A stretch of DNA of 64,000 nucleotides from Paracoccus methylovorus (GTDB lineage: Bacteria > Pseudomonadota > Alphaproteobacteria > Rhodobacterales > Rhodobacteraceae), in assembly GCF_016919705.1 (NCBI RefSeq), contig NZ_CP070368.1, forward strand, positions 1,736,001-1,800,000, given 5' to 3'. The translations under genes were made by a program, and so were the position numbers. Under the pieces are notes generated by a model that saw only the letters and a program-made list of their open reading frames with translations, had not been told where the DNA came from and made no database searches. Of this stretch, positions 11,678 to 23,813 are shown piece by piece (within the stretch, counting starts at the first letter, position 1; every line of letters begins with the position of its first letter).

Positions 11678-12615
11678 TCCACACCCCACCAAGCCCGCTG
11701 CGCGGCATCTTGCTAAAATGCCTCAGCGTGCTGGTGTTCACCATCATGGCTTCGATCGTCAAGGCAACCGCCGACGGGGGGCTTGGCGTGCCGCCGGGGC
11801 AACAGGTGTTTTTCCGTTCGCTGTTCGCCATTCCGGTCATTCTGGTCTGGCTGGCGTTTCGGCACGAACTGGGTATCGGCCTGCGGACTTTTCGGCCCAT
11901 GGGGCATTTCTATCGCGGCATCATCGGCACCGCCGCCATGGGGCTGGGTTTCTGGGCGCTGGCCTTGCTGCCTTTCCCCGAGGTCACGGCCCTGGGCTAT
12001 GCCGCACCGCTGCTGACCGTGATCTTTGCCGCCATGTTCCTTGGCGAAGACGTACGGCTGTTTCGCCTGTCCATGGTGATGCTGGGCTTGCTCGGCGTCG
12101 TCATCGTGCTGTCTCCGCGCCTGACCTTTGGCGGTGAAATGGGCTATAAGGAAAGCTTGGGCGCGATGGTCACGCTGTCGGGCGCAGCCTGCGCGGCGCT
12201 GGCGCAGATATTCGTGCGCAAGCTGGTGCAAGAGGAACGCACCTCGGCCATCGTCTTCTGGTTCTCGGTGACATCGACGTTGCTTGGCCTGTTGACCCTG
12301 CCCTTTGGCTGGGTGCTGCCCGACGCCCCGACCACCGCACTGCTGGTCACGATCGGGCTATTGGGCGGGCTGGGGCAGATCCTGCTGACCTCGGCCTATC
12401 GCTATGCCGACGCGTCGCTGGTGGCACCCTTTGAATATGCCTCGATGCTGCTGGCACTGCTGATCGGCTGGTTCATTTTCGACGAGGCACCAACGGTGGT
12501 CATGTTGATCGGCGCAACGCTGGTTATCACCGCCGGCATCCTGATCATCTGGCGCGAACGGCAACTCGGGTTGGAGCGCAACCGCCAGCGCAAGGCCATG
12601 ACCCCGCAGGGCTAG
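11674..12615 (+). CDS. DMT-superfamily (EamA) transporter
   Basis: A 313-residue inner-membrane protein with about ten hydrophobic segments in two EamA repeats (residues about 10-140 and 155-290). The second repeat includes [29 protein letters not shown], a classic DMT signature. The family exports or imports small metabolites; the substrate is not evident. The start ATG at 11674 overlaps the queG stop in ATGA, so translation is probably coupled. The stop overlaps the stop of the opposing sulfotransferase in CTAG. Confidence 0.9.
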
Positions 12616-14009
12616 GGCCGACCGGCAAAGCCAAAGGCGACATAGTCGCGCAAATACACTTTTTTCGCAGCGGCACGCAGTTCCTGATCGTTCAGGAAAT
12701 CCGGGATGGCCGCGGGATTTGGGAAATCCGCAGGCGTCTTGATCCCAACCCCTTGGGCAAACCATGGCAGGTCGCGGGGCAAATCCGCCTCGCGCAGCAC
12801 CATGTCGGGCGCGCCAAAACGGGCAAATCCCGCCAACACCTCGGACTGACTGGCCCAGCCGGGATAGGTCGGCAGCGTCGTCTGCCCGTTCAGGTTGCGG
12901 CGCAAAAAGTCCAGAAAGGCCGCAAACAGTTCGGCCTTGCGGCCCTGATCCAGCGCGGCCAGCCCTTCTTCGGACGGCAAGGGCACGCGATGGATCTGGC
13001 GCATCAGATCGCGCAACTCGGCCTGCTGCCTGCCCCGAAGCAGCGCTTCAAACGCATCCCACGCGCGCAGCAACGGGTGGCGCAAGACGGTAAAGCTGCG
13101 ATGGCCGACATGCTGGCGCTTCCATTGGCGCAGGCTGTTTTGGTTGAAATCGCCCGCGACCTCGCCCATGCGCCGCAGCCAGTCCGACACCGCGCCGGTC
13201 GGACCGCCCTTGATGGGCATGAAGATCATTCCACTGCCCACCTCGGCCCCCAGGAACGAAGGCACGGCCGGCCCCTTGCGCGGTTCGAAATTCGGGATGC
13301 GGCGCAACATGAACGGGTCCAGACGGGCAAGCTCCGCCTGCATGTCGTCGAAGTTCTCGACCTTTTCGGACAGTTCGCGCGGGTTCTGCGGCACCTGATC
13401 GCTGGCAGGCTCGACCCGTTCCAGATCGGTGCGGCCCAGCCAATGCAGCAGGCCGGTCATCACCGCGGCATCGCGCAGATCCTCGTATCCCAGCCAGAAC
13501 GCGGCCTGACCGGTTACTTGCAAGCGGTGCATGATCTTGAACTGGAATTCCTCGATCTCTCCGGTCACCCGGCAGAATTCGGCGCCATCGAAACGCACCG
13601 CGGCCGGAATCGCGGTTTCGGTTTCGTTCAGCTTCCACTGGTTGGTGGCACGCGCCAGTTCGGTCGAGACATAGCTGTCCACCGGATTGCGGGTCAGGAT
13701 GATCTTGGCGCAGGCCCGGTCCGCCATGATGGCATCAAAGACGCGCGGGTCATGGTCGTGGAAATAGCGAAACCCCGACAAATGGTTCGGCTTGTCGAAA
13801 AGGGCGGCCAGCAGCCGGTGCGGATCGGCCTCGCGTTCGGCCATGGTGATGCCCTTGAGCTCATCCTTGTCGGGCCAGCCCATCATGTAGGGGTTGAACG
13901 CCTCACCAAAGCAGGTGACGCGCTTGACGGCATTCAGCGTCGCCTCCAGCAGGTTCGAGCCGGTGCGCATCTCGGCGAAGATGACGAAACTGCGGAAAGG
14001 CTGGGTCAT
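12612..14009 (-). CDS. PAPS-type sulfotransferase (NodH/LPS sulfotransferase-like)
   Basis: A 465-residue enzyme predicted to transfer sulfate from PAPS to a glycan. The 5'-phosphosulfate loop is visible at residues 14-22 (MRTGSNLLE) and the 3'-phosphate site at about 106-115 (LTRNPVDSYVS). The length is about twice the core domain. The second half contains a further sulfotransferase-like segment, HRSFTVLRHPLLRAWDAF (about residue 304 onward), so it may be a tandem protein. Its start overlaps the GT14 gene stop in ATGA and it is the last gene of the minus-strand glycan block. CysQ, which removes the by-product PAP, is encoded at the head of the same block. Confidence 0.82.
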   Translation of the reverse strand: MTQPFRSFVIFAEMRTGSNLLEATLNAVKRVTCFGEAFNPYMMGWPDKDELKGITMAEREADPHRLLAALFDKPNHLSGFRYFHDHDPRVFDAIMADRACAKIILTRNPVDSYVSTELARATNQWKLNETETAIPAAVRFDGAEFCRVTGEIEEFQFKIMHRLQVTGQAAFWLGYEDLRDAAVMTGLLHWLGRTDLERVEPASDQVPQNPRELSEKVENFDDMQAELARLDPFMLRRIPNFEPRKGPAVPSFLGAEVGSGMIFMPIKGGPTGAVSDWLRRMGEVAGDFNQNSLRQWKRQHVGHRSFTVLRHPLLRAWDAFEALLRGRQQAELRDLMRQIHRVPLPSEEGLAALDQGRKAELFAAFLDFLRRNLNGQTTLPTYPGWASQSEVLAGFARFGAPDMVLREADLPRDLPWFAQGVGIKTPADFPNPAAIPDFLNDQELRAAAKKVYLRDYVAFGFAGRP

Positions 14010-15700
14010 GGTGCAGGGTTTCCTTGGGCAGTCGGCGGTTCGGGATTGGTGGCGGGGAAATCCCCCATCAGTTGCGGGCGTAGCCCCGCATTGCGCAGCC
14101 TTTGCAGAAAGCGCCCCATGCCGGCAATCTCGCGCATGGGCGGCAGATCGTTGGCAGTATCGGGATTGCCGCCCAAACGGTGCAGGATCGCCCCCAGCAC
14201 GGCCGAGGGTCGGGCGCAGAAATCGGCCAGGTCCCAGATCTGCGTCTGCGCCTTGAGCCAGACCGAGTTCAGCACCTCCATCTGCGCAAGTTCGGTGCGT
14301 TGAAGAATGGCCGCAACACGACGAATATCGTCAAAAGGCATGTCGGAATGCAGCAGCGGCACCACCCACGCCCCGGTGATGACAAAGATGCGCGCATTCG
14401 GATCGGTGGCGAGAAACCAGTTCATATCCTGTTCGTCGCGCGGGCTGAACTGCCAGACCTGCATCCGTCGGGTGATGCGGATCAGGTTGGCCAGAAAGCC
14501 GCGTTGGTCAAGATCACGCAGCACCGCACTGTCTGAAAGCGCGCCCGGCCCGATCGGCTGGCGGCCGGCGAATTCCACGCCATGCACGGCAAAGACATGC
14601 CCATGCACATCGGCGTCGATTCGACTGGCGAGCCAAGGCTCAAACCCGGGAAACAGGTCGGTAAAGCCTTGAAACAGCGCATAGGGGGCCGAGGTCTTGC
14701 CGTTCTCGCGGTCTTTCAGCGGAAAGCGGCTTTGCATGTAAAGCCCCGGACGGCCAAGCCGGCGCCGGGTCACCGCATGGCTGATGATGCGGTCCACCCG
14801 CCCGGGGCGCGGCTCGGCAGCCGAGGGTTTGTTGCTGCAAGAATAAGGAAAATGCTGATAAAGGCCGCGCGCGCCGCGCCAGATCTTGCGCGCGACAAAG
14901 CAGCGCGATTGCTGCAACAGCTCGCGATGATCGTCGTAAAAGATATAGGGTTTGCCCTGATCGTCGAACTTGGCCAGCGTCAGCGAGCGGCTTTCGATAT
15001 GCGTGGAATGCCGCCGGGCAAGCGTCTGGAAATAGCTTTCATCCGGGATCCAGACCCGGTTGAAATAGCGGTCGAACTCTTGCCGGCGCGGATCGTTCAG
15101 GATCGCATGCAGCGTCGCCCGCGTCAGGCACCACCATTGCGAACCCAGATGCGGCACCAAACCCTGCGGAATGCGGCGGCTTACCTGCAGCCGGCGCTGC
15201 AGCTCGACATAGCGGTCGAAAAGCTTGCGCTGCCGCCGGAACGAGAACGGAAAACGCAGGGTAAAGCGTTCCTCGTTCAGCCCTCCCACGGTCCAGCCGA
15301 CATCCTCGGCCGTCACGCTTTCGATGAAATCACGCCCCGGGTGCAAAGCAAGATAAGCGCAGATATCCCGCACCGGCCGCAACGGCAGGCAAGCACCCGA
15401 GACGACCAGAACATGCGTCACATCCTTAAAGCCCGCCAGCAGCAGGCCGGCCGCGTCCTGCGTGGCGCGCACCAGACTGAAGCTGCCCCATTCGCAGTCA
15501 TGGCGCGGGCTGAACAGCACCTGCGGCAGTTCCGCAAGCTCGGCTCGCATTGCCTCAATCGCATCTGCCGGGGTCTTGGCGTCGATATGGACCGACACCG
15601 CAGCGCCACCCTGCGCCCAGACCCGCGCCACGCCGGCGGCGATGCGCAGCTCCTCGTGGCACAGCATGACCACGCCCAGCCTGACCGGCGCGGCGCTCAT
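14006..15700 (-). CDS. GT14 core-2/I-branching-type glycosyltransferase, Rhodobacterales form
   Basis: A 564-residue protein. The N-terminal 290 residues match the Branch (GT14) fold: LGVVMLCHEEL, VHIDAKT, a FSPRHDCEWGSFSLVRATQDA segment, VVSGACLPLRP, LGSQWWCLTRA and PDESYFQTL. GT14 enzymes add beta-linked GlcNAc or xylose. The C-terminal half is a separate soluble domain of the kind found with this enzyme in Rhodobacterales (DUF5928-like). No signal or membrane segment is seen, so it acts in the cytoplasm on a nucleotide-sugar donor. It is joined by ATGA overlaps to the GT upstream and the sulfotransferase downstream, which suggests one pathway. Confidence 0.82.
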   Translation of the reverse strand: MSAAPVRLGVVMLCHEELRIAAGVARVWAQGGAAVSVHIDAKTPADAIEAMRAELAELPQVLFSPRHDCEWGSFSLVRATQDAAGLLLAGFKDVTHVLVVSGACLPLRPVRDICAYLALHPGRDFIESVTAEDVGWTVGGLNEERFTLRFPFSFRRQRKLFDRYVELQRRLQVSRRIPQGLVPHLGSQWWCLTRATLHAILNDPRRQEFDRYFNRVWIPDESYFQTLARRHSTHIESRSLTLAKFDDQGKPYIFYDDHRELLQQSRCFVARKIWRGARGLYQHFPYSCSNKPSAAEPRPGRVDRIISHAVTRRRLGRPGLYMQSRFPLKDRENGKTSAPYALFQGFTDLFPGFEPWLASRIDADVHGHVFAVHGVEFAGRQPIGPGALSDSAVLRDLDQRGFLANLIRITRRMQVWQFSPRDEQDMNWFLATDPNARIFVITGAWVVPLLHSDMPFDDIRRVAAILQRTELAQMEVLNSVWLKAQTQIWDLADFCARPSAVLGAILHRLGGNPDTANDLPPMREIAGMGRFLQRLRNAGLRPQLMGDFPATNPEPPTAQGNPAP

Positions 15701-16722
15701 GCCCAGTTCCCCTTGGAGATCAGGCCCAGATCCTCAAGCTGGCGCCAATCCTGCAATTCGCAGGATTCCTCGCACCAGAAATCCGGGTCGTCCCGCAACC
15801 CGGCGTGATAGGCGAGGTATTCCTGGCTGTTGGCGTAATGCTGACGACGGGTCAGTTCCTCGGCGGATTTCTCGACAAAGGTGGACAGGAATTTGGCGTG
15901 CAAAAGACAGCCCGAGGCCTTTTCCCCGCCGTTCTCGTCATAGACCCGGTTCAGCGAGCGTGGCAGCAGCATATGGGTCGAACTGAGATAGGCTTGACCG
16001 CGTCGCCATCGGACCAGCGGAATCTTGTTCAGCGCCGGCGCACTTTCGGGGTCGTCCGCGAAAAACGCCCGCGCGCGCGGCCCCCCCTGAATCCAAAGAT
16101 TGCCATATTCGCCATTCTTGCGGATGACATAATTGGCCGGATCGAACCAGCGCGCCACCTGAAACGGGTCCTGCCCGGCGCGATAGGGCTGCGCAGTCAG
16201 CGAACCCTTGGGATACATGTCCAGCAACATGGCCGAGAAGGATCGGATATTGCTGGCGTCCAGCCAATCGGTCAGCGCCTGCAAGGGCCTTGTGTCGTGA
16301 TGCGGATAGATCAGGAATTCGTCGCAATCCACCGTCAGGCACCAATGTCCTGCGCCATACCGGCGCAACAACCAGTTCAGCCAGTCGAGCCCAAAGAGCG
16401 CATCCTTATAGCTGGCATGGGTCAGCCAGACCGAGACATCGGGCTGATTGGCCAGATATTCGCATCCGCCATCATCCGAGCCATTATCGACCACCAGAAA
16501 ATGCCGGATACCCATCGCCCGGTAATAATCCAGAAACCACGGCAGACGCAGCGCCTCGTTACGGATGGCGGTGAACAGCAGGATATCGCCCGGTTGGATT
16601 TGGGCGGTACGGTCCCACAGCGGACGCAGCCGCCGGCGACACCGAAACGCGCGCCATAACAGCCATTGACGGCGGGCGCGGAGTCTAAGCTTTTGCCGAA
16701 GAATCCTGAACAGGCGCGGCAC
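15697..16722 (-). CDS. Glycosyltransferase family 2-like protein
   Basis: A 341-residue protein with a GT-A fold of the GT2_4/GT92-like kind: IQPGDILLFTAIRNEALRLPWFLDYYRAMGI, then HFLVVDNGSDDGG and a WCLTVDCDEFLIYP segment that supplies the DxD-type metal site. The last part is Trp/Tyr-rich and ends EDLGLISKGNWA. The N-terminus is very basic (about 35 residues). The start is GTG at 16722; an ATG nearby is out of frame. Probably adds one sugar in the surface glycan pathway; donor and acceptor are unknown. Confidence 0.8.
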   Translation of the reverse strand: MPRLFRILRQKLRLRARRQWLLWRAFRCRRRLRPLWDRTAQIQPGDILLFTAIRNEALRLPWFLDYYRAMGIRHFLVVDNGSDDGGCEYLANQPDVSVWLTHASYKDALFGLDWLNWLLRRYGAGHWCLTVDCDEFLIYPHHDTRPLQALTDWLDASNIRSFSAMLLDMYPKGSLTAQPYRAGQDPFQVARWFDPANYVIRKNGEYGNLWIQGGPRARAFFADDPESAPALNKIPLVRWRRGQAYLSSTHMLLPRSLNRVYDENGGEKASGCLLHAKFLSTFVEKSAEELTRRQHYANSQEYLAYHAGLRDDPDFWCEESCELQDWRQLEDLGLISKGNWA

Positions 16723-16756
16723 GGACCATCTTACCTTTTGCCGCTGTTACATAACC

Positions 16757-17986
16757 TTAACGCGCATGTGGCGCAATGATTGGGCTCAACCCGGCGTAGA
16801 AAAGTGCAAAATGCCCGTCCCAATCGGGCACCGGCCAGGGCGGCAGCCGCACTGGCGGTGCAGCAGCCAGACGCGCAACTTCCGCCGCCCAGTCGCCCGC
16901 AGCGTCCGGGGACAGCCAGGTCGCGTAGTCGCCCAACATCTCACGCGCCGCAGGCGAAGGGGCGGCGAGGACGGGAATGCCCCGCCCCGCCGCCTCGGTC
17001 AGCGGCAGGCCGAAACCTTCGGCCCGGCTGGGCATCAACAGGCCATGGCTGCGGCCGATCAGTTCGGCCACCGCACCGTCGTCAAGATCGGACAGCTCGC
17101 GCACCGGACCATCGGGCGGCAGCCGGTCAAGCCGGGCAAAGACCTCGCGATTCTCCCAGCCACGGCGCCCGATGATGAAAAGCTGCGGCGGATCGGGCCG
17201 CAGGGTCAATTGCTGCCATGCGTCCAGAAGAAGGGCGTGGTTCTTGCGCGGCTCGATGGTGCCCAACGTAACGAAGAAAGGGCGCGAGAGATCCAGATCC
17301 GCGGGCAGTCCGGCTGCATCTGGCGCAGCCAGCCGGGTGCCGATCGGAGCCGCAATGACCGGGGTCGCATCCGGCAGGTTCAGCCGGTCGCGCCAGCGCA
17401 GCACATCGGCACGGGTCGCCCCCGAGACGGTCAGGACCAACTCGGCCTGCCCCAGCGCCGCGATGAAACGAGCGCGGAACTTGTCATCCTGCCCGGCGCG
17501 GGTGAATTCGGGATGGTCCAGCGGAATCGTGTCGTGGATCAGCACAGCGCGGGGCAAGGGGCGCAGGTTTTGCAGCAACTCCCGTTGCAGATTGGCGTGG
17601 CCGACATTCAGATAGACCGCCTGCCCCAGATACGCTTGCGCGACAGGGCCAAGGCCGTGCCCGTCACGCCCGGCGCGCGCCAGCGCCATGCGACGCAGCG
17701 CGGCCTCGGCCCGCGCGGGCAAGCTATAGCGTCCCCGCAAACGATCCAGAAAATCGGGCGGCGGCAGGTCATCCAGCTTGCCGCCCAACCAGCGCAAAAT
17801 AGCTGCCCCGGCCAGCGGCGGCAGCAGCAACTGACCCCGCCGCACCCGGCAAAGCAGCAGATGCGGGCGGGTTTGCAGATGAGCCAGCCATTCGGCCTCG
17901 ACCCGGTCTATACCCGTCGCCGGGCCGCCGCCAAGCCGCGAGATCAGCCGTGAGACGTCCAGCAGAACAGCCGCGTCAGGCCCCAT
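16757..17986 (-). CDS. Glycosyltransferase, GT4 family
   Basis: A 409-residue GT-B enzyme. The C-terminal donor domain is clear: FFVTLGTIEPRKNHALLLDAW, LFIIGRRGWENREV and the GT4 motif SRAEGFGLPLTEAAGRGIPVLA with the acidic donor-binding residue. The N-terminal acceptor domain begins LLDVSRLISRLGGGPATGIDRVEAEW. The start at 17986 (MGPDAAVLLD) overlaps the galE stop; the frame is open to 18022. It should transfer a hexose from a nucleotide sugar, possibly UDP-Glc or UDP-Gal supplied by the adjacent galU and galE. Confidence 0.85.
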   Translation of the reverse strand: MGPDAAVLLDVSRLISRLGGGPATGIDRVEAEWLAHLQTRPHLLLCRVRRGQLLLPPLAGAAILRWLGGKLDDLPPPDFLDRLRGRYSLPARAEAALRRMALARAGRDGHGLGPVAQAYLGQAVYLNVGHANLQRELLQNLRPLPRAVLIHDTIPLDHPEFTRAGQDDKFRARFIAALGQAELVLTVSGATRADVLRWRDRLNLPDATPVIAAPIGTRLAAPDAAGLPADLDLSRPFFVTLGTIEPRKNHALLLDAWQQLTLRPDPPQLFIIGRRGWENREVFARLDRLPPDGPVRELSDLDDGAVAELIGRSHGLLMPSRAEGFGLPLTEAAGRGIPVLAAPSPAAREMLGDYATWLSPDAAGDWAAEVARLAAAPPVRLPPWPVPDWDGHFALFYAGLSPIIAPHAR

Positions 17987-18974
17987 ATCCGCCGTTCTGG
18001 TGCCAGCGCCAGGCATCGCCAATCATCTGCGGCAGGGTTGAACGGGTGGGGTTCCAGCCAAGCACCGACACCGCCTTTTCACTGCCCGAGACCAGCTTGA
18101 CCGCATCGCCACCGCGTCGCGGTCCCTCGGTCAACGGCACAGGCCGATTGGTCACATGGTGGGAATGGTCGATCACCTCGCGCACCGAGAAGCCGTTGCC
18201 GGTGCCAAGGCAAAAGACCTCGTGCCCGCCAGCCGCCACCTTGCCGTCCAGCAGGTATTTCAGCCCCAGCACATGCGCATCGACCAGGTCCATCACATGC
18301 ACATAATCGCGGATACAGGTGCCGTCCGGCGTGGGATAATCCGTGCCGTGAATGGTCAGCGCCGCGCGCTTGCCGTCGATGGCGTCAAGGATCAGCGGGA
18401 TCAGATGCGTTTCGGGTTGGTGGAACTCGCCCACCTCGGCATCCGGGTCCGCGCCGGCCACGTTGAAATAGCGGAAGATTACCGACTTCAACCCGTCCGA
18501 GGCCCCGAAATCCTTGAGCATATCCTCGATCGCGCGCTTGCTGGCGCCATAGGCGTTCAGCGGCGTCTGTGCGGTCATCTCGTCCAACACCACCCCATCG
18601 TGGTCGCCGTAAGTGGCGCAGGTCGAGCTGAACACGAAGTTCCGCACACCCGCCGCCAGCGTCGCCTCGATCAGGCTGAGCGAGGCGCTGACATTGCCGC
18701 GCCAGTATTTGCCCGGCTCGCGCATCGCCTCGCCCACCTGGCTGAGTGCGGCGAAATGCATCACGGCGACGGGCTTATGCCGGGCGAACACCTCGTCCAG
18801 CCGCGCACGGTCCAGCAGATCGCCCTGTTCGAAGGGGCCGAATTTCACCGCCTGCTGCCAGCCGGTGCACAGGTTGTCATAGGTGACGGGCTCAAAACCC
18901 GCCGCGCGCAATGCCTTGCAGGCGTGCGAGCCGATATAGCCCGCGCCGCCAGTTACCAGAACCTTGTCTGTCAT
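17976..18974 (-). CDS. galE: UDP-glucose 4-epimerase
   Basis: A 332-residue extended short-chain dehydrogenase that interconverts UDP-glucose and UDP-galactose. The NAD motif is VTGGAGYIGSHACKAL at residues 7-22, Ser-Thr of the active site is in FVFSSTCATYGD, and YGASKRAIE supplies Tyr and Lys. The regions KSVIFRYFNVAGADPD and HVMDLVDAHVL are typical. It follows galU by 6 bases and overlaps the next glycosyltransferase, so it belongs to the sugar-nucleotide supply of this block. Confidence 0.96.
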   Translation of the reverse strand: MTDKVLVTGGAGYIGSHACKALRAAGFEPVTYDNLCTGWQQAVKFGPFEQGDLLDRARLDEVFARHKPVAVMHFAALSQVGEAMREPGKYWRGNVSASLSLIEATLAAGVRNFVFSSTCATYGDHDGVVLDEMTAQTPLNAYGASKRAIEDMLKDFGASDGLKSVIFRYFNVAGADPDAEVGEFHQPETHLIPLILDAIDGKRAALTIHGTDYPTPDGTCIRDYVHVMDLVDAHVLGLKYLLDGKVAAGGHEVFCLGTGNGFSVREVIDHSHHVTNRPVPLTEGPRRGGDAVKLVSGSEKAVSVLGWNPTRSTLPQMIGDAWRWHQNGGYGA

Positions 18975-18980
18975 ATCCCG

Positions 18981-19871
18981 TTATTCCGCCGCCTTGCGCA
19001 TTGCCAGGACGTCGGACAGGTAATCCGCGAATTCGTCCTTGAGTTCGTCACGCGCCAGACCGAAGGCCACGGTCGCCTGCAGGAAGCCGGCCTTGGAGCC
19101 GCAGTCGAACCGCTGGCCGCGGAAACGCAGGCCGTAAACGTCCCGCCCTTCGGCGATCTCGTCGGCGATGGCGTCGGTCAGTTGGATCTCGCCGCCCGAG
19201 CCTTGCTTGAGCTTGTTGAGACTGCCCAGCACTGTCGGCGCCAGAATGTAACGGCCGATGACCGCAAGGTTCGAAGGCGGGTTTTCCTTGGGCTTTTCAA
19301 TCATGCCTTTGGCACGGACGATGGCGCCCATGTCCTCGGCCACGTCCAGGACGCCGTAAGCCTTGGTCTTTTCGACGGGGACTTCCATCGTGGCGACCAT
19401 GCTGCCGCCGGTTTCCTGATAGGCTTCGATCATCTGCTGAAGACAGGGTGGTTCGCCCATGATCACGTCGTCGGTCAGGATGACGGCAAAGGGCTCATCG
19501 CCAACAAGACGACGCGCGCACCACACCGCATGGCCAAGGCCCAACGCCTTATGCTGGCGGATATAGGCGATGGCGCCCGAGTCCATGTTGGTCGAGCGCA
19601 GGATATCCAGCAGTTCGGTCTTGCCGGCCTTTTTCAGATTCGATTCCAGCTCGTGGGCATGGTCGAAATAATCCTCGAGCGCACCCTTGCCGCGCGAGGT
19701 GACAAAGATGAATTCCTCGATCCCCGCCGCACGCGCCTCGTCGATGGCATACTGGATCAGCGGGCGATCCACCAAGGTCATGATCTCCTTGGGAATGCTT
19801 TTCGTGGCGGGTAGAAAGCGGGTGCCCAGTCCAGCCACGGGGAAGATGGCCTTGGTGACTTTGCGAGTCAT
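18981..19871 (-). CDS. galU: UTP--glucose-1-phosphate uridylyltransferase
   Basis: A 296-residue nucleotidyltransferase making UDP-glucose from UTP and glucose 1-phosphate. The N-terminal signature KAIFPVAGLGTRFLPATKSIPKEIMTLVDRPLIQYAIDEA and the FAVILTDDVIMGEPPCLQQM segment are diagnostic. An AGGAGA ribosome binding site lies before the ATG. The 153-base gap ahead of it is AT-rich and probably holds the promoter of the galU-galE-GT unit. Confidence 0.96.
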   Translation of the reverse strand: MTRKVTKAIFPVAGLGTRFLPATKSIPKEIMTLVDRPLIQYAIDEARAAGIEEFIFVTSRGKGALEDYFDHAHELESNLKKAGKTELLDILRSTNMDSGAIAYIRQHKALGLGHAVWCARRLVGDEPFAVILTDDVIMGEPPCLQQMIEAYQETGGSMVATMEVPVEKTKAYGVLDVAEDMGAIVRAKGMIEKPKENPPSNLAVIGRYILAPTVLGSLNKLKQGSGGEIQLTDAIADEIAEGRDVYGLRFRGQRFDCGSKAGFLQATVAFGLARDELKDEFADYLSDVLAMRKAAE

Positions 19872-20024
19872 GAATTTCGGTCTCCTGATTCCTGCGCCGA
19901 CACGGGGCGTGTATCTCTTTCAGCGCCTGCGCAACAAGCGTCTGGTCAGCACAGTCGTTCCCTAAAAATAGCAAATCGATTCAATTTTTGCACTATACGG
20001 CGTTTTTTCGCTGGGTCACCTCCG

Positions 20025-21245
20025 TCATCCAGGCAAATTTCCCCGCTCGCGCAAAATGCGCGCATTCTTGCTCAGAAATATGACAGGCGGATCACCGGGG
20101 CGGGATGGCGCCCAAAGTCCACCACATTGTTCCCACCAGCCACCCGGAGCAAGGGTCCGCCGATGCGGTAGAAAACCGGGCGTCAGCAGCAATAACGTCA
20201 CCGTCTGGCCCTGTGCCACGACCTGCGCCGCACGGGCGCGCAAAGCGCGCGCCTGCCAATACCAGCCCGCCAGAAACAGCGGCTCACCGGCCATCGCCAT
20301 CCGCGGCATGGGCCGCAACGGCGGCGGCGGGGGGCGAGACCATGGGGCCGGCGGCGCTGGCGACGGTCCCTGCCCCTCAGCCAAGCCCCGCTCAAGCGTC
20401 GCAAGGATCGGCGCGATGGCAAAGGGGTCAAGCCGTCCGGCCACCATATGCCGCAACAGCCGTCGCCGCTGGCTGTCGCGCAGGCCGCCGATGTCGCCCC
20501 CATGCCGCGCGGCAAAGATCGCGGCCGACCGGCCGATGGCGGTCAGGTCACGCGGCACCCCTCCTTTGCCACGGCCGGGGCCGGGGGCGATACCGTGGAT
20601 CACCTGCGCCGAGGGAACCACTGCGGTCAGCCCCTGCGGAAAGCGCGCAGCCATGCGCATGTTCACGTCGCTTTCGTCCAGATAATAGGGGAATGCCGGA
20701 TCAAAGCCGCCGATGGCCAACAGCGCCTCGCGCCGAAAACCGCAATTCGTGCCGATAGTACTGACCGGACAGCCGTTTTCGGGCGACAGCAACGTGGTCT
20801 TTGCGATATCCAGCGGCTCGGTGGCACCCGAAGGGGTGATCCGCTCGGCCCGCACCTGCCAGCGCAACCCGTCCGGGCCGCGGGTAAAGCCGGTGGCTGC
20901 GACAACGCGCGGATCGGCAAGGGGACGGGCCAGCGCCTCGGCCCAGCCCGACTCGGCCAACGCGTCATCGTCGATGAACAGCACCACCTCGCCGGCTGCC
21001 AGCGCCAGTCCTTCGTTGCGCGCGGCGGAAATATTGGCGTGGTCAAAGGCCAACCGTTTCAGTGGCAGGTCCGGGCGCATGCCCGAAGAGGCCGGATCGG
21101 CGACCAGCACCACCTCGAAATCGGGATGGGTCTGGCCCGCCAGCGCGGTCAGACAGCGCGCAAGTGCCTGTGGCCGGTGGCGCGAGATGACGACGATACT
21201 TGCCGAAGGCATATGACTTGTCGAAGGCTCATGGCCCTCGGGCAT
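20025..21245 (-). CDS. Glycosyltransferase family 2 protein
   Basis: A 406-residue protein. Residues about 12-230 are a GT2 domain: ASIVVISRHRPQALARCLTAL, LVADPASSG, ISAARNEGLALAAGEVVLFIDDDALAE (DDD metal site) and TIGTNCGFRREALLAIGGFDPAFPYYLDESDVNMR. The remaining 170 residues are Pro/Arg/Ala-rich with no recognised domain. The start ATG overlaps the kdsB stop in TGATG, so the two are coupled. It probably acts on a Kdo-containing core or other surface glycan, judged by its coupling to kdsB. Confidence 0.85.
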   Translation of the reverse strand: MPEGHEPSTSHMPSASIVVISRHRPQALARCLTALAGQTHPDFEVVLVADPASSGMRPDLPLKRLAFDHANISAARNEGLALAAGEVVLFIDDDALAESGWAEALARPLADPRVVAATGFTRGPDGLRWQVRAERITPSGATEPLDIAKTTLLSPENGCPVSTIGTNCGFRREALLAIGGFDPAFPYYLDESDVNMRMAARFPQGLTAVVPSAQVIHGIAPGPGRGKGGVPRDLTAIGRSAAIFAARHGGDIGGLRDSQRRRLLRHMVAGRLDPFAIAPILATLERGLAEGQGPSPAPPAPWSRPPPPPLRPMPRMAMAGEPLFLAGWYWQARALRARAAQVVAQGQTVTLLLLTPGFLPHRRTLAPGGWWEQCGGLWAPSRPGDPPVIFLSKNARILRERGNLPG

Positions 21246-22045
21246 CAGGCGATGCCCATCCGCTGCATCATCGCCTCCAGCTTGGGCACATCCGAGGGGT
21301 TGTTCAGTTCCCAGAACTCACGGCCCTTCGCCTCGACCTCGACGCAAAGGATGCGCCGACCGCGTTCCAGAAAGCGCAACTGTTCAAGGCCCTCCAGCAC
21401 CTCCAGCCGGCCTTCTCCCCACGCCGGATATTCCGCCAGCGCCTGGGGGCGATAGGCATAGACGCCGACATGATGGTATACGGGGGTCGGGTCGCTGGGA
21501 CCGAAATCAGCCCCGGCATAGGGGATGACCTCCTTGGAGAAATAAAGCGCACGGCCGTCATGGCCGAAAACAGCGGTGGTGCCACCCACGCGCCCCGCCA
21601 CCCGGTCGGCGATCAGTTCAGAACGCATGGCACCAGAACAGCGCAGCACCGGCGTCGCCACATCGGCCCCCGGATCGGCGCGCAGGCCGGCGATCAGTTC
21701 CTCGACGAACCAGGCGGGGGTCAACGGCGCGTCCCCTTGCAGGTTCACCACGATCTGGGGCGACAGTCCCAGCCGTTCCACCGCCTCGGCACAGCGCTCG
21801 GTGCCGTTGCGGGCCGTGGTCGAGGTCATGGCGACCTCGGCCCCGAACCCCTCGGCATGGGCGCGGATGCTGTCGTCATCCGTGGCGACGATTACACGGT
21901 CAACGCCCTGAACGGCACGCGCCGCCTCCCAACTGCGGCGGATCAGCGAAAGCCCCTCGCCGGTCGCGCCACGCAGTTCGACCAGCGGCTTGCCGGGATA
22001 GCGCGTCGAGGCATGCCGCGCCGGAATGACGATAACGACGGACAT
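21245..22045 (-). CDS. kdsB: 3-deoxy-manno-octulosonate cytidylyltransferase
   Basis: A 266-residue enzyme that activates Kdo as CMP-Kdo for lipopolysaccharide or capsule. The signature VIVIPARHASTRYPGKPLVEL, the DDDSIRAHAEGFG and RNGTERCAEAV segments and VVNLQGDAPLTP match KdsB/CMP-sugar synthetases, and YHHVGVYAYRPQAL is typical. The start at 22045 has AAGGA 8 bases upstream, inside the end of cysQ; the longer frame to 22120 would overlap cysQ and lacks family similarity. Confidence 0.92.
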   Translation of the reverse strand: MSVVIVIPARHASTRYPGKPLVELRGATGEGLSLIRRSWEAARAVQGVDRVIVATDDDSIRAHAEGFGAEVAMTSTTARNGTERCAEAVERLGLSPQIVVNLQGDAPLTPAWFVEELIAGLRADPGADVATPVLRCSGAMRSELIADRVAGRVGGTTAVFGHDGRALYFSKEVIPYAGADFGPSDPTPVYHHVGVYAYRPQALAEYPAWGEGRLEVLEGLEQLRFLERGRRILCVEVEAKGREFWELNNPSDVPKLEAMMQRMGIA

Positions 22046-22049
22046 GCGA

Positions 22050-22847
22050 TCAGTCCTTGACCAGCAGCACGCCCGGGGCAAAGGCGATAAAGAACGGATT
22101 GTCGAACCCCGGCTTGCCATATTTCAACGGTGTGTGGTCGTCGAAGCGCACCACTTCGCCGCCTGCTCCGCGCAGCACCGCATCGCCGGCTGCGGTGTCC
22201 CATTCCATCGTGCGGCCCAGACGCGGGTAAAGATCGGCCTCGCCCGTGGCGACAAGGCAGAATTTCAGCGAGGAACCAGCCGAGGTCATGTCCCGCACCC
22301 CATAGCGGCCGATATACTCGTCGGTTGCGGCATCCCGGTGCGATTTCGAGGCGACCACCATCAGCGCCCGGTTGTCGGGGGTCGAGTTGACGCCGATGGG
22401 CGTGACCTCGCCCGGCTTTTCACCGAAGGGAGCCTTTTCCTCGACCGAGCCGCCCTGCGCGGTGGTATAGAACAGCCGCCCCTTGGCCGGGGCATAGACC
22501 ACGCCAAAGCGGGGCACACCGTTTTCCACATAGGCGATGTTGACGGTAAAATCGCCGCGACGCTGCACGAATTCCTTGGTGCCGTCCAGCGGATCGACGA
22601 TCAGGAAGGTTGAAAGGCTCTGGCCATGGGTTTCGGCCTGCTCTTCGGTCACCAGCGCAATGTCGGGAAAGGCCGCGCGCAACCCGGCCGAGATCAACGC
22701 ATCCGCGGCCTCATCGGCCTCGGTCACGGGCGAAGAATCGGATTTCGCCCGCACCTCGAAATCGTCGCTGCCATAGATCTTCATGATCTCGTCGCCGGCC
22801 TGCAAGGCAAGGCGTCGCATTTCCGCAATCATTTGATCGAATTGCAT
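22050..22847 (-). CDS. cysQ: 3'(2'),5'-bisphosphate nucleotidase
   Basis: A 265-residue member of the inositol monophosphatase fold that hydrolyses PAP, the by-product of PAPS-dependent sulfation. Metal-site motifs are TEEQAE, then IVDPLDGTKEFVQRRGDFTVNIA, and the C-terminal WDTAAGDAVLRGAGG. The start at 22847 has GGAAAGGAAAA upstream; the open frame to 23060 is non-coding. It heads the minus-strand run into kdsB and the glycosyltransferases and ends 4 bases before the kdsB start. Its presence with a sulfotransferase downstream supports a sulfated product, although CysQ also serves sulfate assimilation. Confidence 0.93.
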   Translation of the reverse strand: MQFDQMIAEMRRLALQAGDEIMKIYGSDDFEVRAKSDSSPVTEADEAADALISAGLRAAFPDIALVTEEQAETHGQSLSTFLIVDPLDGTKEFVQRRGDFTVNIAYVENGVPRFGVVYAPAKGRLFYTTAQGGSVEEKAPFGEKPGEVTPIGVNSTPDNRALMVVASKSHRDAATDEYIGRYGVRDMTSAGSSLKFCLVATGEADLYPRLGRTMEWDTAAGDAVLRGAGGEVVRFDDHTPLKYGKPGFDNPFFIAFAPGVLLVKD

Positions 22848-22991
22848 GGTTTTTCCTTTCCGACCCGTAGCCTCGGGGATGCGGTGCCGATTGAATACGG
22901 CTGTCGGCTTCCTTATGATGCGGCGGACCGCGCAGGGCAAGCATCCCTCACGGACCGCAACAGAAACCCAAGGCAGGAAACCGACCGGCCG

Positions 22992-23813
22992 ATGTTCACC
23001 CAGCGCCGCAGCCGCAACATGGTCGAGGCCGCGTTCACCACGCTGTCGCTGATCTATCATGTCACGGTGAATAACCTGCGCAAGGGGCAGCGCAATGCCG
23101 TGGTCGGGCTACTCATGACGGTCGTGCAGGCCGTCGCGATGGTTCTGGGCTTTTATCTGTTGTTTGCCATGATGGGGGTGCGGCGCGCGCCAATCCGGGG
23201 CGACTACATCCTTTACATCATGTCCGGGATATTCATGTTCATGGCCCATTCGCAGGCCATGGGCGCGGTGGCCGGTGCCGGCAATCCCAGCAACCAGATG
23301 ATGAAGCACGGGCCTATGAACACCGCGGTGATGATCTCGGCCGCAGCGCTTGCTTCGCTTTACCGACAGACCTTTTCCAGCATCGTGGTGTTGTCGGGTT
23401 ATCATTTCCTGATTGAGCCCATCCATATCGACAACCCGCTGGCCTGCTATGCGATGCTGCTGCTTGCCTGGTTTTCGGGCTGCTGCATCGGGCTGATATT
23501 CCTGTCGATGCGTCCGTGGTGGCCGCAGGCCGCGCAGGTGCTGACCCAGCTTTACCAGCGCCTCAACATGGTGTTTTCCGGCAAGATGTTCGTGGCCAAC
23601 ATGATGCCTACCATGATGCTGCATATGTTTTCCTGGAACCCGCTGTTTCATATCATCGACCAGACGCGGGGCTTCGCCTTCATCAACTATTCTCCGCGAA
23701 ATTCGTCCTTGGAATATCCGATCTATGCCACGCTGACATTGCTGATGATCGGGCTTATGGCGGAATTCGTGACCCGCAAGGCCGTTTCGCTCAGTTGGTC
23801 GGCCGCACGTTGA
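22992..23813 (+). CDS. ABC-2 type polysaccharide export permease (KpsM/Wzm-like)
   Basis: A 273-residue inner-membrane protein with about six hydrophobic segments and many Met residues. The N-terminal amphipathic region (MVEAAFTTLSLIYHVTVNNLRKGQRNAVVG) and the NPLFHIIDQTRGFAF stretch fit ABC-2 permeases of capsule and O-antigen export. It is divergent from cysQ, with 144 bases between. No ATPase partner gene lies beside it; dnaK follows. It probably exports the glycan made by the adjacent block, with an ATPase encoded elsewhere. The start at 22992 is the first good ATG; the larger frame upstream overlaps the cysQ promoter. Confidence 0.82.
   Translation: MFTQRRSRNMVEAAFTTLSLIYHVTVNNLRKGQRNAVVGLLMTVVQAVAMVLGFYLLFAMMGVRRAPIRGDYILYIMSGIFMFMAHSQAMGAVAGAGNPSNQMMKHGPMNTAVMISAAALASLYRQTFSSIVVLSGYHFLIEPIHIDNPLACYAMLLLAWFSGCCIGLIFLSMRPWWPQAAQVLTQLYQRLNMVFSGKMFVANMMPTMMLHMFSWNPLFHIIDQTRGFAFINYSPRNSSLEYPIYATLTLLMIGLMAEFVTRKAVSLSWSAAR

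What the first reader, a model, noticed from the sequence alone, without database searches (positions are those of the whole stretch)
12612..23813. Possible sulfated surface-glycan system
A minus-strand run links cysQ, kdsB, a GT2, galU, galE, a GT4, a GT2-like enzyme, a GT14 branching-type enzyme and a PAPS sulfotransferase. Several genes are joined by overlapping start and stop codons, and an export-type ABC-2 permease is divergent from cysQ. The PAP phosphatase at the head of the block with a sulfotransferase at the end suggests that the cell makes and sulfates a glycan. A GT14 enzyme plus a sulfotransferase recalls animal proteoglycan synthesis, a rare pair in bacteria. The sequence shows the genes and motifs; the product and its sulfation are inferred.
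Basis: partly seen in the sequence, partly recalled or inferred. Interest (0 to 1): 0.72.

Follow-up and report, generated by a model that had tools for sequence, protein, structure and literature searches.

The report
Likely sulfated surface-sugar gene block
A Paracoccus-like bacterium carries a gene block, kept in nearly the same order in most of the relatives sampled, that probably builds a cell-surface sugar chain and adds sulfate to it using an enzyme pair better known from animals; the product itself has not been seen.

Summary
In detail: ten genes lie where stated. The block is a family-wide Rhodobacteraceae feature. DUF5927 (the GT14's second domain) occurs in 204 of 248 genomes and a sulfotransferase match in 203. 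Where both places were printed, 155 of 158 are adjacent, GT14 first. Permease-cysQ-galU-GT2_4-GT14 precede the sulfotransferase in order in 30/31, 39/39 and 28/28 loci with enough flank. galE, kdsB, GT4 and GT2 vary.

The 465-aa protein has an N-terminal Stf0/NodH-like sulfotransferase domain with intact PAPS motifs and a degenerate C-terminal half. The GT14 has a Core-2/xylosyltransferase fold. A second GT14 in the genome also neighbours a sulfotransferase; 28 of 30 sampled relatives keep that pair.

Outside Paracoccus the block faces the LPS-transport operon (36 of 39 and 32 of 33 loci); it holds the genome's only kdsB. I therefore favour a sulfated LPS-type glycan over a capsule. Sulfation, acceptor and product are inferred. 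'Rare pair' is wrong for this family; 'proteoglycan-like' goes no further than fold.

The parts
12612..14009 (-). Two-domain sulfotransferase (465 aa): N-terminal Stf0/NodH-like PAPS sulfotransferase domain (about 1-236), C-terminal degenerate sulfotransferase-like part (about 250-465)
14006..15700 (-). GT14 glycosyltransferase (Branch, PF02485) with C-terminal DUF5927 (PF19349)
15697..16722 (-). GT2-like glycosyltransferase (Glyco_tranf_2_4, PF13704), GTG start
   Evidence: E 3.4e-34; upstream of GT14 in all 98 loci counted.
16757..17986 (-). GT4 glycosyltransferase (start 17986 or an upstream codon)
   Evidence: variable among relatives.
17976..18974 (-). galE, UDP-glucose 4-epimerase
   Evidence: TIGR01179 over cut-off.
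18981..19871 (-). galU, UTP-glucose-1-phosphate uridylyltransferase
   Evidence: TIGR01099 324.5 bits (cut-off 326.8).
20025..21245 (-). GT2 glycosyltransferase
   Evidence: PF00535; variable among relatives.
21245..22045 (-). kdsB, CMP-Kdo synthetase; only CTP_transf_3 match in the genome
22050..22847 (-). cysQ, 3'(2'),5'-bisphosphate nucleotidase (PAP phosphatase)
   Evidence: TIGR01331 over cut-off.
22992..23813 (+). Divergent KpsM/VexB-like ABC-2 permease, no ATPase beside it
   Evidence: start codon read; below the KpsM equivalog cut-off; position conserved.

Best explanation
The block is an ancestral assembly line of Rhodobacteraceae for a conserved envelope glycan, most likely a Kdo-linked LPS core-type oligosaccharide. 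GalU and GalE supply UDP-glucose and UDP-galactose, soluble GT2/GT4/GT2_4 enzymes extend the chain on the inner face of the membrane, and the GT14 (with DUF5927) adds a late or branching sugar. The sulfotransferase then moves sulfate from PAPS (made by CysD and CysNC encoded elsewhere) onto the GT14 product through its N-terminal domain; its degenerate C-terminal part probably positions the acceptor. CysQ destroys the inhibitory by-product PAP. Shown: gene content, order, co-occurrence, folds and motifs. Inferred: acceptor, sugar, linkage, sulfation, export route.
For: Conserved order and adjacency 155 of 158. Sulfotransferase fold, with Stf0, glycopeptide and heparan-sulfate sulfotransferases among the top rows, and PAPS motifs kept down to about 28% identity. 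cysQ found in 97 of 98 loci, GT2_4 and GT14 in 98 of 98. LPS context: outside Paracoccus lptC-lptA-lptB, often with kdsD, lie convergent just downstream (36 of 39, 32 of 33), and at least two of them in 16 of 19 divergent or outlier loci (read from the rows); sole kdsB inside. No enzyme of the block has a segment over the hydrophobicity threshold used. GT2_4 stays 50-70% identical to the window's across genera, unlike strain-variable capsules (general knowledge). Three inspected genomes keep GT14 but lack an adjacent ST (L214, L215, L216), while the two ST-only genomes matched only the C-terminal half: this fits ST acting after GT14.
Against: Lpt genes are not next to the block in any of 42 Paracoccus-group loci, the window's own genus. 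The lpt-hpf-ptsN group is a housekeeping cluster, so its neighbourhood may be accidental. kdsB is missing from many loci (16 of 31 and 17 of 28 have it; 38 of 39 in Paracoccus). The KpsM-like permease hints at capsule export, and the genome has KpsC/S/D-like and KpsM/E/ATPase-like genes elsewhere. No sulfate has been measured. galU, galE, kdsB and cysQ all have other uses.
Confidence: 0.5

Rival explanations
1. The product is an ABC-transporter-dependent capsule or exopolysaccharide: the glycan is built on a KpsC/KpsS-type Kdo linker, sulfated by ST, and exported by the divergent KpsM-like permease with an ATPase encoded elsewhere.
For: KpsM/VexB-like permease fixed at the head of the block; KpsS-like, Poly_export and KpsC-like genes and KpsM-KpsE-ATPase-like modules in the genome; sole kdsB in the block. 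A review passage says Paracoccus zeaxanthinifaciens subsp. payriae makes sulfated polysaccharide (PMC4189415, passages), and that species has an ST homologue (P0100, 68%; strain not stated). Vibrio sp. KMM 8419 has a sulfated capsule locus with kps genes, cysNDC and sulfotransferases (PMC11641403, passages).
Against: Permease far under the KpsM cut-off (43.7 of 300 bits); two better-scoring KpsM candidates exist elsewhere, also under the cut-off; no kpsC/S/T in the block; strong sequence conservation is unusual for capsules; lpt neighbourhood outside Paracoccus.
Confidence: 0.25
2. ST acts on a lipid, protein or small molecule; the neighbouring glycosyltransferases make something else and the order is frozen history.
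For: Top fold rows include Stf0 (trehalose) and glycopeptide sulfotransferases, and Foldseek's own first hit is a tyrosylprotein sulfotransferase (E 5.7e-4); GT14's best profile match is a protein xylosyltransferase; three inspected genomes keep GT14 without an adjacent ST.
Against: 4-bp overlap with GT14 and 155 of 158 adjacency; a second GT14 is also paired with a sulfotransferase.
Confidence: 0.2
3. ST is a catalytically dead scaffold and nothing is sulfated.
For: C-terminal half lacks a recognisable 5'-PSB and varies at R310.
Against: N-terminal PAPS motifs and the Glu at 36 are invariant in all 17 rows checked.
Confidence: 0.05

Closest known systems
Stf0 / NodH-type bacterial sulfotransferases (PDB 1tex; 9vki 'LPS sulfotransferase NodH'); LpsS of Sinorhizobium meliloti (recalled, from no call) as the LPS example
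   Same: N-terminal fold, MR[TS]GSN loop, GE motif, R/S 3'-phosphate motif
   Different: Here joined to a second, degenerate sulfotransferase-like part and bound genetically to a GT14; sequence match to 9vki covers only profile positions 7-152
Animal GT14: C2GnT-L and xylosyltransferase 1
   Same: GT-A catalytic fold and PDE/PAES motif
   Different: C-terminal DUF5927; no Xylo_C listed; bacterial; donor and acceptor unknown
Sulfated capsule locus of Vibrio sp. KMM 8419 (PMC11641403, passages)
   Same: Glycosyltransferases plus sulfotransferases plus PAPS synthesis plus ABC-type export genes
   Different: That locus differs between strains, has rml genes and GT2/GT61/GT4-type families, and no GT14 or cysQ in the passages read; here the block is family-wide and holds cysQ
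Red-algal carrageenan genes (Chondrus crispus, PMC7359372, passages)
   Same: GT14 and carbohydrate sulfotransferases proposed to act in one sulfated-glycan pathway
   Different: Eukaryotic; the role of GT14 there is also a hypothesis

Membership tests
PAPS sulfotransferase (Stf0/NodH-like) | Sulfotransferase fold | tested here: met
PAPS sulfotransferase (Stf0/NodH-like) | 5'-phosphosulfate loop, Glu after it, 3'-phosphate Arg/Ser | tested here: met
   R15, G17, S18, N19, G35, E36, R107, S115 invariant in 17 rows, 11 of them divergent; 5 shorter hits were dropped first. Motif roles are recalled. The window protein itself is under the Pfam cut-off (17.6 of 27 bits).
PAPS sulfotransferase (Stf0/NodH-like) | Sulfate transfer from PAPS | not testable with these tools
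   Needs an enzyme assay.
GT14 (Core-2/I-branching, xylosyltransferase) | Branch domain and GT-A fold with catalytic Glu | tested here: met
GT14 (Core-2/I-branching, xylosyltransferase) | Donor and acceptor specificity | not testable with these tools
   No assay; XT1 is best by profile, C2GnT by fold.
Animal-type proteoglycan initiation | Xylo_C domain after the GT14 domain (recalled feature of XT1) | tested here: not met
   Pfam lists only Branch and DUF5927 for the window protein at E up to 1, and no Xylo_C among the families matched by the 32 members.
ABC-dependent (group 2/3-like) capsule locus | KpsM over the equivalog cut-off with KpsT beside it | tested here: not met
   43.7 of 300 bits; neighbouring frames are cysQ and a dnaK-like frame, the latter labelled by eye.
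ABC-dependent (group 2/3-like) capsule locus | Capsule_synth (KpsC/KpsS-type) genes in the genome | tested here: met
   PF05159 over cut-off, about 670 kb away; the KpsS equivalog model is not reached (195.1 of 600 bits).
LPS core biosynthesis locus | Linked Kdo and LPS-transport genes | tested here: inconclusive
   Sole kdsB inside; lptCAB linked in 68 of 72 non-Paracoccus loci (two sets that may share genomes) but in 0 of 42 Paracoccus-group loci.
LPS core biosynthesis locus | Product is part of LPS | not testable with these tools
   Needs LPS analysis.

The most novel reading that the evidence does not exclude
Nearly the whole family Rhodobacteraceae, including marine roseobacters, carries an ancestral sulfated envelope glycan made by two independent GT14-sulfotransferase pairs (GT14-DUF5927 with the two-domain ST, and GT14-DUF5928 with a divergent Sulfotransfer_2 protein): a bacterial counterpart to the animal coupling of GT14 enzymes with glycan sulfation, with the DUF domains acting as coupling modules and the sulfated glycan as a likely attachment site for phages or gene transfer agents.
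Probability: 0.35. Interest if true: 0.82.

Novelty: new variant of a known kind. Interest (0 to 1): 0.62.

Why it matters
Sulfated bacterial glycans are known from scattered strains. If this reading is right, sulfation of an envelope glycan is an ancestral, near-universal trait of a large and widespread bacterial family. It would affect charge, phage and gene-transfer-agent binding (in Rhodobacter capsulatus the capsule is required for optimal GTA infection: PMC9552610, passages; whether this block makes it is unknown) and organic-sulfur flow, and would give function to two uncharacterised domain families, DUF5927 and DUF5928. Natural ST-less relatives (L214, L216) offer ready comparisons.

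Tried and rejected
GT14-ST fusion: an apparent single reading frame in L076 turned out to be a frameshift inside the GT14 end, not a fusion. DUF5927 as a sulfotransferase-like domain: its predicted strand-helix pattern looked suggestive, but profile comparison gave no support (probability 1.65%) and Pfam gave nothing; the fold search did not cover that part, so its fold stays open. The same comparison gave only 7.2% (E 0.005) between the two halves of ST, and the fold rows cover residues 4-243, so calling the C-terminal half sulfotransferase-like rests on the Sulfotransfer_2 matches in relatives. Kinase and guanylate-kinase rows were treated as general P-loop resemblance. The second sulfotransferase found no PDB relative at E 0.1.

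Papers: no paper held mentions DUF5927. Searches (15 of 16 listed; 10 of 20 listed) showed, by titles and abstract beginnings, none describing this pair in Rhodobacteraceae; subscription journals are mostly not held. Two searches also gave nothing on it. PMC7024282 spoke of Paracoccus carotenoids only; the review did report a sulfated Paracoccus polymer. PMC6473078 held only a reference on the capsule, and the Shark Bay paper nothing used here.

Limits of my own scripts: the Fisher p treats related genomes as independent and is not used as a probability. The 'dnaK' query, reused, was translated out of frame; its rows are not used. In one search the clustering merged some genes (GT14 with ST, several ORFs under 'ABCperm'), so its order strings were not used for counts; two searches were. 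Selection: the 40 loci L033-L072 were picked by me from genomes with both genes, 31 of them had enough upstream flank; of the 80 named loci, 67 had. The unnamed and named sets may share genomes.

Full report
CHECK OF THE OBSERVATION. The window lies in a 4.38-Mb genome of five contigs and is from Paracoccus or very near it: of 4165 related proteins found for the sulfotransferase, the 120 listed carry almost only Paracoccus names where they have one (65-87% identity), with an unnamed 98% match. All ten genes are there with the stated order and strand. Gaps of -11 to +34 bp join most genes, with one 153-bp gap between GT2 and galU. The scan found 6 promoter-like sites in the region where shuffles give 2.2; one 9-of-12 match lies in that gap, which is no proof of a promoter. 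Co-transcription of the whole block is therefore not shown.

CONSERVATION. Of 248 genomes drawn from the family (one per genus apart from the window's own, which has two), 204 have DUF5927 and 203 have an ST match at E 0.001. Comparing the two lists by hand gives 201 with both, 3 with DUF5927 only (G057, G171, G236), 2 with ST only (G133, G148) and 42 with neither. Two of the 201 (G074, G178) have only weak ST matches elsewhere in the genome, so at most 199 hold a true pair. For the 158 genomes with both places printed, 155 are adjacent on one strand with GT14 first; the exceptions are G074, G178 and G085 (two contigs). In loci with at least 9.4 kb upstream, the core permease-cysQ-galU-GT2_4-GT14 is complete and in order in 30 of 31 genus loci (L041 lacks permease and cysQ), 39 of 39 Paracoccus loci and 28 of 28 other named loci; galE is in 22, 39 and 21, kdsB in 16, 38 and 17, GT4 and GT2 each in 18, 14 and 12. 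In a class-wide draw DUF5927 was found in 5 of 385 genomes, all five in this family, and in none of 14 control genomes; beyond the class it was not searched. That the family is Rhodobacteraceae is inferred from the titles.

LOSSES. L216 and L214 keep the block up to GT14 and go straight to ptsN with no ST; L215 lacks ST next to GT14 too; L217 and L218 keep only an ST C-terminal half beside ptsN. G171 and G236 were not inspected at locus level. In the 248 genomes no full-length ST match occurs without DUF5927. The pattern fits ST acting after GT14, though numbers are small.

NEIGHBOURHOOD AND PRODUCT. Outside Paracoccus the block is followed, on the opposite strand, by ptsN, hpf, lptB, lptA, lptC, often kdsD, and an exonuclease gene (Pfam labels): at least two of lptABC in 36 of 39 unnamed-genus loci and 32 of 33 named loci with enough flank, and in 0 of 42 Paracoccus-group loci; in 16 of 19 divergent or outlier loci by the rows. 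In the window genome kdsB in this block is the only CTP_transf_3 match. These favour LPS. On the other side, the permease is KpsM/VexB-like, KpsS-like, Poly_export and KpsC-like genes lie at C1:1.08 Mb, and a KpsM-KpsE-ATPase-like module is present twice, though none of the Kps-type NCBIfam cut-offs is reached. So a capsule remains possible. Apart from the permease no protein of the block has a segment above the hydrophobicity threshold used, so assembly is probably on the inner face of the membrane.

PAPS SUPPLY. CysD and a CysN-APS kinase fusion are encoded together on C4. The genome's other PAPS_reduct-family gene is over the cut-off of NF002537, phosphoadenylyl-sulfate reductase, and of the cysH subfamily model, but below the cut-offs of both the APS- and PAPS-specific models. 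It contains CC and CAPC motifs, which by recalled knowledge mark iron-sulfur APS reductases. If so, PAPS would be made chiefly for sulfation and cysQ would have a clear reason to be here; this is inference, and the NCBIfam name points the other way.

SECOND PAIR. The genome's other Branch protein (L160 9061-10872) has DUF5928 and stands divergent from a Sulfotransfer_2 protein (E 4.7e-34). DUF5928 has a match in 203 of 248 genomes. A homologue of that sulfotransferase lies beside it in 28 of the 30 best-scoring loci, the only ones examined. So both Branch-domain GT14 genes found in this genome have a sulfotransferase next to them, which argues for a functional coupling rather than accident.

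VERDICT. The kind (sulfated bacterial surface glycan) is known; the GT14-sulfotransferase modules, their fixation across the family and the two-domain sulfotransferase appear undescribed in the papers I could search (listings only, apart from the passages cited). The chemistry is untested.

Noticed in passing
L160 8321-10872 (own genome C1 about 814.3-816.9 kb): Second GT14 (Branch + DUF5928) divergent from a Sulfotransfer_2 protein; pair kept in 28 of 30 sampled relatives.
   Followed up: partly
L198 9214-12536 and L199 8687-12009: A 3.3-kb KpsM-KpsE-ATPase-like module present twice, on contigs C1 and C2, 99.88% identical: recent duplication or mobile segment.
   Followed up: partly
L214, L216 (G057, G178); L217, L218 (G148, G133): Natural deletions: ST alone missing in the first two; only a C-terminal ST half matched in the last two.
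   Followed up: partly
L135, L151: Records titled Nocardioides marinus and Cytophagaceae carry genes of the Rhodobacteraceae block: probably contamination or mislabelling.
   Followed up: no
L076 8225-11395: Frameshift near the GT14 end in the Paracoccus halophilus record makes one long reading frame with ST; either an assembly error or a damaged gene.
   Followed up: no
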